Shown here piece after piece: positions 38,528 through 44,547 of a stretch of DNA of 48,496 nucleotides. Source of the DNA: a bacterium (GTDB taxonomy: Bacteria; Elusimicrobiota; Elusimicrobia; UBA1565; UBA9628). How positions within the stretch are numbered: the stretch's first letter is position 1; every line of letters begins with the position of its first letter. A program made the translations under genes and the position numbers. The notes below the pieces were generated by a model that made no database searches, was not told the DNA's origin, and worked only from the letters and a program-made list of their open reading frames with translations. The stretch is taken from contig JAKAQV010000001.1 in assembly GCA_021819565.1 (NCBI GenBank), forward strand, positions 1 through 48,496, written 5' to 3'.

Positions 38528-39433
38528 TTATTTTATGGGCGATTTCCCAAGATTTTCGGCGAAATTATAAAGCGCCTCCTTGATGCCCCTCATCAGAGGA
38601 CCGACATCCTTTTCAAGACGCTCAGTCCTTAGCCCCGCCTTTAAGGGCCGCTTCGCTTTTTGTTTGAGCTCCGAGGTCGGTAATCCTTGAATCAAATTCG
38701 GGTCCAATTTAAGAATCCGCGCCGCCTCTCGGGCAAAATCAAGGCGGGAGACAAAATCAGAACCCGCGGCGTGGAAGATTCCGCGCGCGTCTATTTCAAG
38801 CAACTTCTCTAAGGCCAAGGCCAAATCAGGGGCATAGGTCGGCGTCGCCCATTGATCGGAAGGGACAAGCATCTTCTCTTTTTGAGAAAGCCTTTTGAGC
38901 AACTGCATCGCAAAATTGTTGCCTCCTTCCTGAAAACTATAGACCGTGGTCGTCCGAACCACCAAGTTATTGTCTGAAACTTCTAAAACGGCTTGTTCCC
39001 CCTCAAGCTTGCTTTCCCCGTAAACATTGAGGGGACGGGTCTCAGCGTTTTCATCATAAGGGCCGGAAGTTCCGTCAAAAACATAATCAGTAGAAAGAAA
39101 CACGAGCTTGCCGCCGGGAATTTTTTTCATCTCCCGGGCAATGTCAGCGGGAGATTTTAGATTAATCTGAAAGGCTTTTTCTCGATCGGATTCGCAGCCA
39201 TCGACATTCGTCATAGCCCCGCAGATAATGGCGATGTCCGGGCGAACGCGAGAAACCACCGCCACAGCTTCTCCTTCTTGGGACAAATCAAGAGGCAGGA
39301 GTTCAGAACTCAAGCGAGAAAAACCCGTGCCCATGACCTGATATTTCTCTCCGGAAAAGACCTTAAGACACAAACGCCCTAATTGGCCGGTCGCCCCGAT
39401 AATTAAAACTTTTTTAGTCCGAGAATTAAACAT
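38528..39433 (-). CDS. RmlD-like SDR reductase (dTDP-4-dehydrorhamnose reductase family)
   Basis: This 301-residue extended short-chain dehydrogenase has the cofactor motif 'LIIGATGQLGRLCLKV' at the N-terminus, 'KLVFLSTDYVFDGTSGPYDE' and catalytic Y-x3-K in 'NVYGESKLEGEQAVL'. It falls in the RmlD substrate-binding group, which also includes MAT2B-like proteins. No other rhamnose genes are nearby, so the exact sugar nucleotide is open. The ATG lies six bases after TGTTAGAAT. Confidence 0.85.
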   Translation of the reverse strand: MFNSRTKKVLIIGATGQLGRLCLKVFSGEKYQVMGTGFSRLSSELLPLDLSQEGEAVAVVSRVRPDIAIICGAMTNVDGCESDREKAFQINLKSPADIAREMKKIPGGKLVFLSTDYVFDGTSGPYDENAETRPLNVYGESKLEGEQAVLEVSDNNLVVRTTTVYSFQEGGNNFAMQLLKRLSQKEKMLVPSDQWATPTYAPDLALALEKLLEIDARGIFHAAGSDFVSRLDFAREAARILKLDPNLIQGLPTSELKQKAKRPLKAGLRTERLEKDVGPLMRGIKEALYNFAENLGKSPIK

Positions 39434-39475: not shown

Positions 39476-40309
39476 GTGCTTTGTCTCCTTCTGTATTTTT
39501 TATTTCCCGCCCTAACATCGCCTTTGAAAGCGGGCGCTTTAGGAAGCTCCTCTGACCTCGCCCTCTATTCTCTATGGCCGCAATCTCCCGCTCCTATTCC
39601 CCTGCCCAACCCTTGGAACCGACAAGTCCTTCCGGATTTTTCCCCATCCCCCGCAAAAACTTCCGACTCTAAAAGTCCCGCGGTCTTTGTGCGCCTCAAA
39701 TTAAGCATGAAAACCAAGGAAAGCCTAAAAGATTCTCTGATCGATCTGGGCTCACAAGCGGGGTTTCACCCCGATGCCCGGTTTAATCCCGTGGTAGATG
39801 GACCGTCCCAAAAAGCCTTTATCTGGGGATGGATTCTTCCCTCCAATATTAAGCAGGTGGCCAAACTTCCAACGGTCGAGAAAATATCCTTTTCCGATCA
39901 CAAGCGCGAAGCCATGTCCCCTTCTTCTCAAGAAACCCTCATCGTCGGGCTCGAGGTCAATTCCTCTGTCTCTCAAACCCTGTCGGAGGATCTTCCCCGA
40001 ATCGTCAAAAATACCGAGTTTAAAGTCCAAAAAACAATCGGATATCAACCCATTCCCCAATCCGATAAAATCGCCATCCTCTTCTTAGGAAAAATTTCGA
40101 TATCCAATATCGACAAACTTCTCAATCAACGAAATGTCGTGAAGGTATTGCCGCTCATGTCGCAGTCCAAAAGCGTTTCTCTCAGCAAGGTCAAAAACCC
40201 ATTGCCTCCTGCTGTAAGCGCGGTGGACCAATTAATGTTTTGGGGCGGAGCCGCGGGGCTCTTGATTGGGGGTTGTTTGTTCTATCTGTTAAGACTCATA
40301 AGTTCATAA
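39476..40309 (+). CDS. Membrane-anchored protein with a duplicated ~70-residue domain, unknown function
   Basis: This 277-residue protein starts at a GTG. It has a signal peptide or anchor (about 1-20), a proline-rich stretch (about 34-65), and two similar domains at about 69-139 and 154-227. A membrane helix (about 254-273) closes it. The domains share a beta-alpha-beta-beta-alpha-beta-like pattern and end alike: 'LPSNIKQVAKLPTVEKISF' and 'SISNIDKLLNQRNVVKVLPL'. They resemble ferredoxin-like inhibitor I9/propeptide folds, but I do not recognise the family. It is followed after six bases by ftsX and stands where ftsE is usually found, so a role with FtsX or the peptidoglycan machinery is an inference from context. 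Confidence 0.7.
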   Translation: MLCLLLYFLFPALTSPLKAGALGSSSDLALYSLWPQSPAPIPLPNPWNRQVLPDFSPSPAKTSDSKSPAVFVRLKLSMKTKESLKDSLIDLGSQAGFHPDARFNPVVDGPSQKAFIWGWILPSNIKQVAKLPTVEKISFSDHKREAMSPSSQETLIVGLEVNSSVSQTLSEDLPRIVKNTEFKVQKTIGYQPIPQSDKIAILFLGKISISNIDKLLNQRNVVKVLPLMSQSKSVSLSKVKNPLPPAVSAVDQLMFWGGAAGLLIGGCLFYLLRLISS

Positions 40310-40315
40310 TCTTCA

Positions 40316-41074
40316 ATGAAAAGGCGTTTCTCTGCGGCTTTTTTGCTTGGAATCATTCTCGGTCTCGGGGGAGAAACTCTTCTTCTATCAAAAACCGCCT
40401 CCGGGAATTTCGCCGATAATTTGAGGAAAGATTTTCGCGTGCTTTTCTTTATGCCGGAAAAATCCTTGCCGCAGACACTTTTAAACGCTCAAAAATCAGT
40501 GGGCGAAATACCCGGAACCCAATCCTCCATTTTAATTTCTCCCAAAAAAGCTCTCTCTATTCTCCAAAAAGAAGATCCGGAATTAGCGCAAAATCTTTCT
40601 TTCTTGACCGCCAATCCAATAGAGCCAATGATCGAAGCGACTCTAAACAAGGACGGCCTTCTCTCTTTTGAATCCTGGATATCTCAAGCCGCCGCTCTGC
40701 AAAAATGGACCGAAATACGCTATCAGCCGGAAGAGCTCAAATCTATTTTAAGACTGGGATTATATCTGCGTTTCCTGACCGTGGCGCTGACCGCTCTTTT
40801 ATGCCTTTCTTCTCTTCTGCTAGTTTTAGGAGTGCTTTTTCCTCTCATCGTTTTCTCAAAGCGCTCTCCGCATAAGATGCTTGAGCTTCTTTCTCTTAGC
40901 GCGAAGACTTTCGGGGTTTGCCTTATCGGCGTTTGTATCGGCGGAATTTTCTCCGCCGCTTTTGCCTGGCCCTTGGGCCGAACCGTAGAGTGGTGGAGGT
41001 GGCCCACCCTGTTGACTCAAGCGATCTTCATTCTTCCAACCGCCCTTGCCGGCGCGATTCTATGCGTTTGGTAA
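40316..41074 (+). CDS. ftsX: FtsX-like cell-division membrane protein
   Basis: This 252-residue protein has FtsX topology: one helix near the N-terminus (about 6-24), a periplasmic domain, then three helices (about 146-170, 193-217, 228-250). The extracellular part carries the weak FtsX signature 'ANPIEPMIEATLNKDG' followed by 'KWTEIRYQPEELKSIL'. With FtsE it would control septal amidases through an EnvC-type protein, which is encoded next. FtsE is not adjacent. The stop lies 13 bases inside the next gene. It is shorter and more divergent than typical FtsX (about 300 residues). Confidence 0.75.
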   Translation: MKRRFSAAFLLGIILGLGGETLLLSKTASGNFADNLRKDFRVLFFMPEKSLPQTLLNAQKSVGEIPGTQSSILISPKKALSILQKEDPELAQNLSFLTANPIEPMIEATLNKDGLLSFESWISQAAALQKWTEIRYQPEELKSILRLGLYLRFLTVALTALLCLSSLLLVLGVLFPLIVFSKRSPHKMLELLSLSAKTFGVCLIGVCIGGIFSAAFAWPLGRTVEWWRWPTLLTQAIFILPTALAGAILCVW

Positions 41075-42168
41075 TCATCTCGTGGCTATTTTTATCTCCC
41101 GCCGCCCACGCCAAACCCCTTAGCCGAAAACTGGGCGAGATCAAAAAAGAAATTCTTGAAACCAGAAGGGAAATCCGCCATTACCAAAAAACGGAAATCC
41201 GCTTAAAAAAAGATTCTGAATTTCTCAAGCGAAAGCATTTGACCAATCAAAAAATGCTTGAGCGCTTAAACAAACTGGAAACCTCCGTCAAAAACAAGGA
41301 GCAGGATCTCGCCCTTCAATTAAAATCCCTGCAAGAGGATTCCAATTTCTGGTCCGAAGAATTGAAAAAAAATATCCGGGCTTATTTTTCCGATATCGAA
41401 ACCGGTCGAGGATATCAAAGCGTCGATTTTCTTCAGCAGGAACAATTCTTGCGTTTTTCTCTCATCAATGATTCTGTCATGCTCAAGGCGCTCAGCGGAA
41501 GCGCTCGAAAGACCGTCCAGGCCAAGCAGAAAACGGATGCGGTCAAAGAGGGAATTATCGCGCAAAGCCAAAAAGCCATCGCCCAAAACAAAAAACTCTC
41601 AGCCTCCTTTTCCCGCGAACAATCCCTAATCCAAAGCGTCTCCGAGAAAAAATCCGAGGCGTTAAAAAGAGAAAAGAAATTAGAAGAGTCGGAAAAGGCC
41701 CTGACACTCTTATTAAAAAAATTCAACCGACGAAGAAAAACGCGCCCCATCAGAAAAATTTATCGTCCGCGCCCGGTCATAGGCCCCCATTCCCTCTCCT
41801 GGCCCGCGCGCGGCAAAGTTATTGATTTCTTTGGAAAGGAGAAAAATCCCGAGCTGGGAACCTGGGTGATTCATCAGGGAATACTCCTTGAAACTTCCCC
41901 TCATTCGCCGGTCCATAATGTCGCCCTAGGCCGGGTTATCTTTGCCGGGCCTTTTCGCTCTTATGGACAAATCGTGATTGTCGACTGCGGCCATGAATTT
42001 TTCGCCATCTACGGGCATCTCGGGTCCATTCTCGCGAAAACCGGGGAAATGGTGGGGCGAGGACAAATCATTGGGACCAGCTCTTTGAACCCGCGCTCTG
42101 GAAATTTATATTTTGAGCTTCGGCAAGGAACGACCGCGCTTAACCCGCTTGGCTGGTTGAAAAAATAA
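41062..42168 (+). CDS. envC: EnvC-like murein hydrolase activator (degenerate LytM/M23 protein)
   Basis: The protein is 368 residues from the ATG at 41062, where a signal peptide starts (...SPAAHA-KP). A long coiled coil (about 20-225) leads to a C-terminal LytM fold (about 250-368). The catalytic residues are mostly lost. The usual H-x3-D is 'HQGILLE', without the Asp. The usual HLHFE is 'NLYFELRQG', without either His. This matches the inactive LytM domain of EnvC ('LYFEIRRQG'), which activates amidases instead of cutting peptidoglycan. It overlaps ftsX by 13 bases, the known EnvC partner. Confidence 0.85.
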   Translation: MRLVIISWLFLSPAAHAKPLSRKLGEIKKEILETRREIRHYQKTEIRLKKDSEFLKRKHLTNQKMLERLNKLETSVKNKEQDLALQLKSLQEDSNFWSEELKKNIRAYFSDIETGRGYQSVDFLQQEQFLRFSLINDSVMLKALSGSARKTVQAKQKTDAVKEGIIAQSQKAIAQNKKLSASFSREQSLIQSVSEKKSEALKREKKLEESEKALTLLLKKFNRRRKTRPIRKIYRPRPVIGPHSLSWPARGKVIDFFGKEKNPELGTWVIHQGILLETSPHSPVHNVALGRVIFAGPFRSYGQIVIVDCGHEFFAIYGHLGSILAKTGEMVGRGQIIGTSSLNPRSGNLYFELRQGTTALNPLGWLKK

Positions 42169-42169
42169 T

Positions 42170-43507
42170 ATGATGATAGAGATGATCCGCTTAGACAAAA
42201 TGAGCCGAACCCTCCTGATTATTTCTTTTTTCGCCGCGACTCTTTGTCTGCCCGCCCAAAGCCAGGTCGTTGTCTCCTCCGCTTCTCAGCAGGGGCTTTC
42301 CGGAGACGAGACCTACAAGAAAATTAAAACCTTGGTCGATGTCCTCCATTACATTCGCGAAGACTATGTCGATCCGGTTTCAACCAAGCAATTAATGGAC
42401 GGAGCTTTATCGGGCATGGTTGACACACTGGATCCTTTCTCTCAATATCTGGGCGTTGAAGCGGCCGGAGAAATGGACACCGAAACCAAGGGGAATTTTG
42501 ACGGGGTCGGGCTTCAGCTCAATGTCGATGGAGATTGGCTCACGGTCATTACCCCGATCCCGGGAACCCCCGCCTACAGCGCTGGCATCTTGCCGGGAGA
42601 TCGTTTGTCGGCGGTCAACGGGCAAAGCACCAAGGATGAAACGCTCAATCAGATTCAAAAAGATCTTCGGGGAAAGCCCGGCAGCCAGGTCGCCTTGACG
42701 GTGTTGCGAAAAGTTCCGGAGGGAAATTCCGAAATCTGGAAGCCCCTGAATTTTACGGTCGAAAGAAAAAAAATAAAAATAGAAAGCGTTCACTCTCAGA
42801 TGCTTCCCAATCAGATCGGATATATCCGAATCGTGGAATTTAACGCCAACACCGCCCGAGACACCTTGACGGCTCTTAATTCTTTGAAAAAACAAGGGAT
42901 GACGAGTCTTATTTTGGATCTCAGAAATAATCCTGGCGGGCTTTTGTCCTCCGCCGTTCAGATTGCCTCATACTTCCTAGCCGGGAAAAAGTTAATCGTC
43001 TACACGCAGGGAAGAAAACCCGACGACCGCGAGGAATTTAGAAGCTTTGAGACCGCCCCATTTCCCGATCTTCCGATGATCGTTTTAGTCAACGGCGGAT
43101 CCGCCTCAGCGGCCGAAATCGTTTCCGGAGCGCTTCAAGACAATCACCGCGCTCTATTGGTCGGCATGCGCACCTATGGAAAAGCCAGTGTCCAATCCAT
43201 CATCCCGCTCGATGACGGCTCCAGCCTTCGCCTGACGATCGCTCGTTACTATACCCCGTCCGGGCGTTCGATTCAGCGCAACGAGACAAACCACACCGGA
43301 GGAATTTTGCCCGACATTATCGTCAAGGTTCCTCCCGATATTGAAGCCAAACTTTACGATCAGTGGGATATGATTTACGCGAAAAATCAAAAACCTCACT
43401 CCCTGGTCAAGAAAAAATACCGCGTTCCGGACAAAATTCTCGACCGCGCCGAAGAAATTCTCAAAGCCCGCAGCATTTTAGGAACGCAAGGAAACGCCGC
43501 CCCTTGA
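42170..43507 (+). CDS. ctpA: C-terminal processing peptidase (S41, CtpA/Prc family)
   Basis: This 445-residue exported serine protease has an N-terminal signal (about 12-32). An N-terminal helical part with 'LVDVLHYIREDYVDPVSTKQ' is followed by a PDZ domain ('GVGLQLNVDGDWLTVITPIP'). The S41 core has the catalytic serine in 'VNGGSASAAEIVSGALQD' and the lysine in 'TYGKASVQSIIPL'. It cleaves envelope proteins near their C-termini and often controls peptidoglycan hydrolases. Placement directly after ftsX/envC is common in many phyla. The stop overlaps the tsaD TTG. Confidence 0.94.
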   Translation: MMIEMIRLDKMSRTLLIISFFAATLCLPAQSQVVVSSASQQGLSGDETYKKIKTLVDVLHYIREDYVDPVSTKQLMDGALSGMVDTLDPFSQYLGVEAAGEMDTETKGNFDGVGLQLNVDGDWLTVITPIPGTPAYSAGILPGDRLSAVNGQSTKDETLNQIQKDLRGKPGSQVALTVLRKVPEGNSEIWKPLNFTVERKKIKIESVHSQMLPNQIGYIRIVEFNANTARDTLTALNSLKKQGMTSLILDLRNNPGGLLSSAVQIASYFLAGKKLIVYTQGRKPDDREEFRSFETAPFPDLPMIVLVNGGSASAAEIVSGALQDNHRALLVGMRTYGKASVQSIIPLDDGSSLRLTIARYYTPSGRSIQRNETNHTGGILPDIIVKVPPDIEAKLYDQWDMIYAKNQKPHSLVKKKYRVPDKILDRAEEILKARSILGTQGNAAP

Positions 43508-44547
43508 AAGTTCTGGGAATTGAAACCTCTTGCGATGAAACCTCGGCCGCGGTGGTCGATCAAAAGCGGGGAATTTTGTCGAATGTCGTAATTTCTCAAA
43601 TCCCTCTTCATCGCCCTTTTCAAGGCGTCGTTCCCGAGTTAGCCTCAAGAGCCCATTTCAAAAAAATCGCGCCGGTCATAGAAGAAGCGTGCCTAAAGGC
43701 CGGAATTAAACGGCCGGACGCCGTCGCTTTTACCCAAGGTCCAGGCCTCATGGGATCTCTTCTGGTGGGAAGAGTCGCCGCCGAGACGCTCGGAAGGATT
43801 TGGGATTGTCCCGTCATCGGAATTAACCATCTGGAAGGGCATATTTTCGCCGCCGAACTAGAGGGGAAAATTCGTTTTCCGTTATTGGCTCTCATTGTTT
43901 CAGGAGGACATACCGATTTAGTTCTAGTTTTTAAGCCCGGCCAATACCGGGTTTTAGGCCGGACCCGCGATGATGCCGCCGGAGAATGCTACGACAAGGT
44001 GGCCAAGATATTGGGACTGGGCTATCCCGGCGGCCCCATCATCGACCGACTGGCCAAGACCGGAGACAAGAACTCTATTATTTTTCCGCGTCCCTATCTT
44101 GAGGGAACTTTCGATTTTTCTTTTTCGGGGCTTAAGACCGCTCTTCTCTATCACATCAACAAACGCCTTAAAAGGCCGATGAACGCCAAAATTAAAAGCT
44201 TGAAAAAGCCGATTTTAACGCCGGGAGAAATTTCAAACATTTGCGCCTCATTTCAAGAAGCCGTCTGCGAAACCCTCGTTCATAAGACTCTGGACGCCGC
44301 TCAAAAATTTAAAATCCGCCAAATCGTCGTTGGGGGCGGCGTTTCCGCCAATAGCCGCTTAAGAGAAATGTTTATCGAGAAATGCCAAAATCAACAAATT
44401 GCCGTCAGCCTTTCCTCTCTAAAACTCTGCACCGATAATGGCGCGATGATCGCCCAAGTCGCCATTCATAAACTCTCATCAAAAACTAAAAAACGCGCTT
44501 TAACCAATAAAAGCGATCCGGCTCTTCCTTTTAAGAATTGGGCTTAG
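43504..44547 (+). CDS. tsaD: tRNA N6-adenosine threonylcarbamoyltransferase TsaD
   Basis: The protein is 347 residues from the TTG at 43504, which overlaps the ctpA stop (TTGA); the family N-terminus 'KVLGIETSCDETSAAVVDQK' begins there. An earlier in-frame start would add 47 residues inside ctpA. Metal/ligand histidines are in 'RAHFKKIAPVIEEA' and 'GINHLEGHIFAAEL'. 'LIVSGGHTDLVLV' and 'VVGGGVSANSRLRE' complete the ASKHA fold. It attaches threonylcarbamoyl to A37 of ANN-decoding tRNAs. Confidence 0.96.
   Translation: MKVLGIETSCDETSAAVVDQKRGILSNVVISQIPLHRPFQGVVPELASRAHFKKIAPVIEEACLKAGIKRPDAVAFTQGPGLMGSLLVGRVAAETLGRIWDCPVIGINHLEGHIFAAELEGKIRFPLLALIVSGGHTDLVLVFKPGQYRVLGRTRDDAAGECYDKVAKILGLGYPGGPIIDRLAKTGDKNSIIFPRPYLEGTFDFSFSGLKTALLYHINKRLKRPMNAKIKSLKKPILTPGEISNICASFQEAVCETLVHKTLDAAQKFKIRQIVVGGGVSANSRLREMFIEKCQNQQIAVSLSSLKLCTDNGAMIAQVAIHKLSSKTKKRALTNKSDPALPFKNWA

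What the first reader, a model, noticed from the sequence alone, without database searches (positions are those of the whole stretch)
39476..40309. Duplicated-domain membrane protein in the place of FtsE
The protein before ftsX is not the ATPase FtsE but an unknown exported protein with two related ~70-residue domains (both ending in 'SNI' plus about 11 residues and 'V.K(I/V)') and a C-terminal helix. The fold pattern recalls protease propeptide/inhibitor domains, and a CtpA-type protease lies three genes on. A regulator of the protease or of the EnvC/FtsX complex is a testable idea. This is my best candidate for an undescribed component.
Basis: inference. Interest (0 to 1): 0.6.

Follow-up and report, generated by a model that had tools for sequence, protein, structure and literature searches.

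The report
Unknown partner of ATPase-less FtsX
In a bacterial phylum that looks like Elusimicrobiota, the cell-separation machine FtsX–EnvC has lost the ATP-burning motor (FtsE) that drives it in model bacteria, and in one class it comes with an undescribed periplasmic two-domain protein encoded directly in front of it.

Summary
The 277-aa protein X before ftsX has a signal-peptide-like start, two homologous βαββαβ domains (D1–D2 profile match E=3.7e-8) and a C-terminal transmembrane helix. It matches no Pfam, NCBIfam or PDB family. X lies directly before ftsX in 53 of 54 loci, and envC and ctpA are there too in 50. The domains resemble ACT/ferredoxin-like folds; nothing points specifically to protease propeptides.

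"In the place of FtsE" needs rewording. No ABC ATPase occurs in any of 83 X/ftsX loci read across the phylum, and no FtsE passes the model cut-off in 248 genomes; the nearest ATPases tested are LolD or MacB. The FtsX proteins keep the EnvC-binding periplasmic domain but lack the coupling helix through which FtsE acts. FtsX and EnvC are fused into one polypeptide in two lineages. EnvC is a degenerate LytM, so it should be an amidase activator, and Amidase_3 enzymes are present.

X is present only in part of one class, so it is an addition to an FtsE-less module and not a one-for-one replacement. Best reading: X is a periplasmic accessory subunit of an ATP-independent FtsX–EnvC switch. The module is well supported; the role of X is inference.

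The parts
39476..40309 (+). gene X: exported two-domain protein with C-terminal membrane helix, 277 aa, GTG start
   Evidence: ORF; found in 32 of 38 relatives; AF2 model
39476..39535 (+). hydrophobic N-terminus, signal-peptide-like (about residues 1-20)
   Evidence: sequence MLCLLLYFLFPALTSPLKAGA; by eye only, no signal-peptide predictor available
39566..39577 (+). conserved YSLW motif in the disordered linker (residues 31-34)
   Evidence: S, L, W at least 83% conserved and Y 79% in 29 sequences
39677..39907 (+). domain D1 (residues 68-144), beta-alpha-beta-beta-alpha-beta
39923..40171 (+). domain D2 (residues 150-232), same fold, homologous to D1
   Evidence: hhalign E=3.7e-8; model
40217..40303 (+). 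C-terminal transmembrane helix (residues 248-276)
   Evidence: helix in model; hydrophobic segment in the order f1-f3, absent in family f8
40316..41074 (+). FtsX-like protein without FtsE-coupling helix, 252 aa
   Evidence: TIGR00439 E=3.5e-7; FtsX_ECD in 41 of 42 homologues; Foldseek to P. aeruginosa FtsX E=1.5e-8; coupling helix missing
40439..40720 (+). FtsX periplasmic (EnvC-binding) domain, about residues 42-135
   Evidence: model; E. coli FtsX domain 6tpi TM-score 0.79 by target length
41062..42168 (+). EnvC-like coiled-coil + LytM protein; start overlaps ftsX
   Evidence: PF01551 E=1.5e-18, EnvC equivalog E=2.4e-17 but below its cut-off
41869..42147 (+). degenerate LytM domain (HQGILLE and GNLYFEL in place of the HxGxD and HLHFE ligand motifs)
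   Evidence: alignment of EnvC homologues
42170..43507 (+). CtpA/S41 carboxy-terminal processing protease with PDZ domain
   Evidence: PF03572 E=1.7e-56, TIGR00225 over cut-off
43504..44547 (+). tsaD, conserved end of the gene block (TTG start overlapping the ctpA stop)
   Evidence: same order across the phylum
38528..39433 (-). rfbD/RmlD-like gene, divergent upstream neighbour
   Evidence: PF04321 E=3.3e-67; not part of the module

Best explanation
X is an accessory subunit of a septal cell-wall hydrolysis switch that works without the FtsE ATPase. Shown by sequence and models: the phylum keeps an FtsX with its periplasmic domain but without the FtsE-coupling helix; no ftsE is found; an EnvC with a dead LytM domain is encoded next to it, and is fused to FtsX in two lineages; amidases are present; X is encoded directly before ftsX. 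Inferred: FtsX serves as a membrane anchor and clamp for the EnvC coiled coil. X is exported, held by its C-terminal helix beside FtsX, and its two ferredoxin-like domains bind the FtsX periplasmic domain and/or the EnvC coiled coil. That binding sets whether EnvC exposes its LytM domain to the amidases, so control comes from the periplasm and not from ATP hydrolysis. CtpA probably removes EnvC or X after use.
For: X adjacent to ftsX on the same strand in 53 of 54 loci, with envC and ctpA in 50, although X was searched for genome-wide and found once per genome. FtsX fold: best PDB match P. aeruginosa FtsX E=1.5e-8, and the E. coli FtsX periplasmic domain 6tpi; FtsX_ECD in 41 of 42. No ABC ATPase in any of 83 X/ftsX loci, with regex control 8 of 8. 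No FtsE over cut-off in 248 genomes. The nearest ATPases in five genomes score best as LolD or MacB, while E. coli FtsE scores 311.7 bits against a cut-off of 264.85. Positions of E. coli FtsE-contact residues I261, T264, F267 are gaps in 49, 49 and 50 of 50 sequences; V. cholerae FtsX carries a 15-residue insert there relative to the profile; the coupling helix is the main FtsE-FtsX contact (PMC11139282). FtsX-EnvC fusions in six genomes of f2 and in f12. Degenerate LytM; Amidase_3 in 10 of 10 genomes.
Against: Many genomes with the same FtsE-less ftsX-envC-ctpA block have no detectable X, so X cannot be essential to the mechanism everywhere. X in family f8 lacks the membrane helix, so anchoring is not universal. 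X and the FtsX periplasmic domain show no detectable homology. One genome (G025) has the block with a different gene in the place of X.
Confidence: 0.5

Rival explanations
1. X is an adaptor or inhibitor of the CtpA protease (as NlpI is for Prc and LbcA for CtpA): its domains or its conserved linker motifs present or block substrates such as EnvC.
For: ctpA follows in the same block in 50 of 55 X loci; C-terminal processing proteases of P. aeruginosa and E. coli use partner proteins and degrade wall hydrolases (abstracts of PMC6050968, PMC11021448, PMC8996183); short conserved motifs in a disordered linker.
Against: X is not a TPR protein like the known adaptors (TPR: own knowledge). No propeptide/inhibitor family matches any of 28 members at E<=1. 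ctpA stays in the block in genomes with no X. X is adjacent to ftsX, not to ctpA.
Confidence: 0.2
2. X is an envelope protein with its own job (for example peptidoglycan or outer-membrane tethering) that merely shares an operon with ftsX.
For: No direct interaction evidence; X is missing in some genomes while ftsX-envC-ctpA stays; in G180 about 7 kb separate X from ftsX.
Against: Immediate adjacency kept across f1, f2, f3, f4, f8 and one genus of f7, more than unselected gene order would keep; X is found once per genome and at this site.
Confidence: 0.2
3. The FtsX here is still energised, by an unrelated or shared ABC ATPase (LolD or a MacB-type domain) acting in trans.
For: LolD/MacB-like ATPases exist in the genomes tested; FtsX keeps its four membrane helices.
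Against: The coupling helix is missing in nearly all members; those ATPases are encoded with, or fused to, their own permeases.
Confidence: 0.08

Closest known systems
FtsEX-EnvC amidase-activation system (E. coli, P. aeruginosa, V. cholerae)
   Same: FtsX periplasmic domain and four-helix layout, EnvC with degenerate LytM, Amidase_3 enzymes in the genome
   Different: no FtsE, no coupling helix, FtsX-EnvC fusions in two lineages, extra protein X in part of one class
SweD/SweC, cofactors of FtsEX-CwlO in Bacillus subtilis (PMC6705773)
   Same: small extra membrane proteins that work with FtsX to control a wall hydrolase
   Different: SweDC are type II proteins with cytoplasmic functional domains and work with FtsE; X has its domains outside the cytoplasm and no FtsE is found
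Cg1604 and its partner Cg1603 in Corynebacteriales (PMC9897464)
   Same: membrane-anchored extracytoplasmic protein that switches a coiled-coil-controlled hydrolase; an FtsEX-independent model was proposed
   Different: Cg1604 has a receiver-like beta/alpha fold and acts on a RipA-type hydrolase; X has two ferredoxin-like domains and is encoded with ftsX-envC
LbcA-CtpA and NlpI-Prc (PMC11021448, PMC8996183)
   Same: CTP protease working with a partner on cell-wall hydrolases; ctpA lies in the same block
   Different: X is not a TPR lipoprotein and is adjacent to ftsX, not ctpA
ACT-type/ferredoxin-like tandem domains (acetolactate synthase small subunits)
   Same: tandem beta-alpha-beta-beta-alpha-beta domains; best structural match of X, E=7.7e-5
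   Different: TM-score 0.2 by query length, 11% identity, regulatory subunits of cytoplasmic enzymes; no sequence-family match

Membership tests
FtsE (TIGR02673) for X | ABC ATPase with Walker A and LSGGE signature | tested here: not met
   X has no such motifs and no NCBIfam or Pfam hit
Protease propeptide/inhibitor families (e.g. I9) for X | sequence-profile match | tested here: not met
   28 members scanned against Pfam, no propeptide family at E<=1
Protease propeptide/inhibitor families (e.g. I9) for X | ferredoxin-like beta-alpha-beta-beta-alpha-beta fold | tested here: inconclusive
   topology fits, but the listed top PDB matches are mainly ACT-type and other ferredoxin-like domains
ACT domain for X | fold match with good superposition, or profile match | tested here: inconclusive
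   Foldseek E=7.7e-5 but TMq 0.21, rmsd 13 A; no Pfam ACT match
FtsX (TIGR00439 / PF18075) for the next gene | periplasmic FtsX_ECD domain | tested here: met
   41 of 42 homologues match PF18075 at E<=0.1, best 2.2e-14 (the window protein itself does not reach that threshold); fold match 6tpi TMt 0.79 for the window protein
FtsX for the next gene | four membrane helices in the FtsX arrangement | tested here: met
   model pLDDT 94, P. aeruginosa FtsX E=1.5e-8, TMq 0.57
FtsX for the next gene | NCBIfam equivalog score | tested here: not met
   29.7 bits against a cut-off of 255
FtsX within an FtsEX complex | coupling helix between TM2 and TM3 that contacts FtsE | tested here: not met
   I261/T264/F267 positions gapped in 49-50 of 50; 15-residue deletion against V. 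cholerae FtsX
FtsX within an FtsEX complex | ftsE next to ftsX | tested here: not met
   0 of 83 loci
EnvC (amidase activator) | LytM domain without the catalytic zinc ligands | tested here: met
   alignment
EnvC (amidase activator) | N-terminal coiled coil that binds FtsX | not tested
   K/E/Q-rich, heptad-like N-terminus seen by eye; no coiled-coil prediction or binding test
CtpA (TIGR00225) | S41 processing-peptidase model over its cut-off | tested here: met
   310.8 bits against 218.6
SweDC or Cg1604 cofactors | sequence homology | not tested
   compared by published description only; the X profile has no PDB sequence match at E<=1

The most novel reading that the evidence does not exclude
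A whole phylum runs FtsX-EnvC amidase activation without ATP: FtsX has become a passive clamp and X (where present) is a new periplasmic input that opens or closes it, so mechanical coupling by FtsE is not an inherent need of the FtsX-EnvC switch.
Probability: 0.35. Interest if true: 0.8.

Novelty: new variant of a known kind. Interest (0 to 1): 0.6.

Why it matters
Current models of septal hydrolysis say that ATP binding and hydrolysis by FtsE is passed through the FtsX coupling helix to EnvC. A lineage that keeps FtsX, EnvC and amidases but has lost FtsE and the coupling helix, and twice fused FtsX to EnvC, is a natural experiment on whether ATP is needed at all. It also offers a new candidate regulator, X, and one presumed member of the phylum (Elusimicrobium minutum) is in culture (own knowledge), though no X was detected there.

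Tried and rejected
X as a remnant of FtsE: rejected (no motif, exported). X as a duplicated FtsX periplasmic domain: profile comparison gave E=0.2 for X against FtsX and 0.06-0.3 for the single domains, so not supported although both are ferredoxin-like. X as a protease propeptide: no profile match. FtsE elsewhere in the genome: best hits are LolD next to LolC/E-type permeases, or MacB-type next to or fused with their permeases. X outside the phylum: the single scan of named genomes with the window protein returned only three same-genus MAG contigs, and the family profile had no stretch conserved enough to scan with, so distribution outside the phylum is untested. Organism name: record titles say only 'bacterium'; Elusimicrobiota is inferred from a class member with a single 1,643,562-base contig, which I recall as the size of the Elusimicrobium minutum chromosome (memory, not checked). 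PDB sequence search with the X profile: nothing. Literature on FtsX without FtsE, or FtsX in Elusimicrobia: nothing relevant found in the open-access library.

Full report
What is there. The ORF at 39476-40309 (+) encodes 277 residues: a hydrophobic start, a short proline-rich linker with a conserved YSLW motif, two domains (residues 68-144 and 150-232) and a C-terminal helix. The two domains are homologous to each other (hhalign E=3.7e-8 local, 1.6e-7 global). AlphaFold2 with 25 sequences models both, mostly with pLDDT above 90, as beta-alpha-beta-beta-alpha-beta. Foldseek against the PDB gives ACT-domain acetolactate synthase small subunits first (E=7.7e-5, TM-score 0.2 by query length): a general ferredoxin-like resemblance, not a family assignment. 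Pfam (and 28 members), NCBIfam and PDB sequences give nothing.

Distribution and linkage of X. A whole-genome search of 38 relatives found one match per genome in 32. Members outside the genus are mostly longer (360-500 aa) because of a proline-rich, probably disordered stretch before the domains. The profile search of 248 genomes of the phylum found 44 with X; this is a lower bound, since a better profile added members in family f8 and family f4. Of 55 X loci read, 54 carry ftsX on the same piece; X is directly upstream on the same strand (<700 nt) in 53, and envC and ctpA are there too in 50. The exceptions are a contig end (L036) and a genome (G180) with about 7 kb, including a DNA methyltransferase-like ORF, between X and ftsX. 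In families f1 and f2 X ends in a hydrophobic helix, often with a terminal FVPYR motif in f1. In f8 X stops right after the second domain and has no such helix, so there it should be a soluble periplasmic protein.

The neighbours. The next protein is an FtsX: TIGR00439 E=3.5e-7 (29.7 bits, far below the 255-bit cut-off), FtsX_ECD in 41 of 42 homologues, a confident model (pLDDT 94), best PDB match P. aeruginosa FtsX at E=1.5e-8 and the E. coli FtsX periplasmic domain at TM-score 0.79 by target length. Then comes an EnvC-like protein whose LytM domain has lost zinc ligands (HQGILLE and GNLYFEL; the loss is general in the alignment), as expected of an amidase activator. Next is a CtpA-type protease, then tsaD. 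Amidase_3 enzymes are present in 10 of 10 genomes tested.

FtsE is missing, not replaced. No ABC ATPase ORF occurs in any of 83 loci (most of them 5-18 kb) around X/ftsX across the phylum, while the same pattern is found in 8 of 8 control ABC loci. TIGR02673 finds no FtsE above its cut-off in 38 or 248 genomes. The cut-off is strict (7 of 14 control genomes pass), so I also tested the nearest ATPases of selected genomes. In the single-contig class member G071 only two hits to E. coli FtsE reach E<=1e-30; one scores best as MacB and lies before a MacB-like permease ORF, the other scores best as LolD and follows a LolC/E-like permease (permeases recognised by eye). The best hits in the window genome, G001, G065 and G024 also score best as MacB or LolD; E. 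coli FtsE scores 311.7 bits in the same scan. The FtsX proteins lack the coupling helix: the TM2-TM3 stretch is 19-33 residues against 39 in E. coli, with one exception of 45; positions of the E. coli FtsE-contact residues I261, T264 and F267 are gaps in 49, 49 and 50 of 50 sequences; and V. cholerae FtsX has a 15-residue insert there against the profile. That helix is the main FtsE-FtsX contact, and mutations in it strongly reduce FtsE at the membrane (PMC11139282). Because ftsX-envC-ctpA-tsaD without FtsE is found in families with and without X, in several classes, the lack of FtsE is wider than X and not caused by it. In X-less members the gene before ftsX is unrelated (often alkaline-phosphatase-like or pyruvyltransferase-like, judged by eye).

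Fusions. In family f2, six genomes encode FtsX and EnvC as one 634-672-aa ORF; family f12 has a separate fusion. This supports a permanent FtsX-EnvC complex that does not need regulated assembly.

Mechanism. Shown: gene order, FtsX fold, missing FtsE and coupling helix, dead LytM, fusions. Inferred: FtsX clamps EnvC without ATP; X, outside the cytoplasm and in f1/f2 anchored beside FtsX, contributes binding or gating; CtpA turns the components over. The alternative that X serves CtpA is weaker because X is adjacent to ftsX and ctpA stays where X is absent, but nothing here excludes it. Precedents for clade-specific partners exist: SweDC with FtsEX-CwlO (PMC6705773) and Cg1604 in Corynebacteriales, for which an FtsEX-independent model was proposed (PMC9897464).

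Limits. No interaction was tested; X outside the phylum was not tested; the organism name is an inference; genomes are mostly incomplete assemblies, though the FtsE result rests on many. The literature search covered open-access papers only, so an earlier report of FtsE-less FtsX may exist elsewhere.

Noticed in passing
L037:6631-8532, L038:9889-11817, L039:8508-10523, L040:2801-4768, L043:5492-7507, L044:5936-7843, L157:6697-8655: FtsX and EnvC are fused in one ORF in six genomes of one family and, separately, in another family of the class.
   Followed up: partly
L023:1417-2402: In G003 ftsX is split over two overlapping frames on a 7.4-kb, low-coverage contig: frameshift or assembly error.
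   Followed up: no
window:39466-39478: A TATAAAAT sequence ends a few bases before the GTG start of X and there is no visible ribosome-binding site: possibly a leaderless transcript.
   Followed up: no
L118:686-7549 (G180): About 7 kb including a DNA methyltransferase-like ORF lies between X and ftsX: a possible inserted island.
   Followed up: no
L101-L112, L173, L175, L180, L181, L183: In family f8 the X homologues end right after the second domain without a membrane helix, and their N-terminal parts share short motifs (such as DP..QD..E and RDAP/RDSP) with those of other families.
   Followed up: partly
window:36037-36627: Exported-looking protein with pentapeptide-type (A.L..A.L) repeats between nusA and infB on the minus strand.
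   Followed up: no
G021 (family f1): A 95% complete genome with neither X nor FtsX, and only weak M23-type matches to EnvC: loss of the whole module or an assembly gap.
   Followed up: partly
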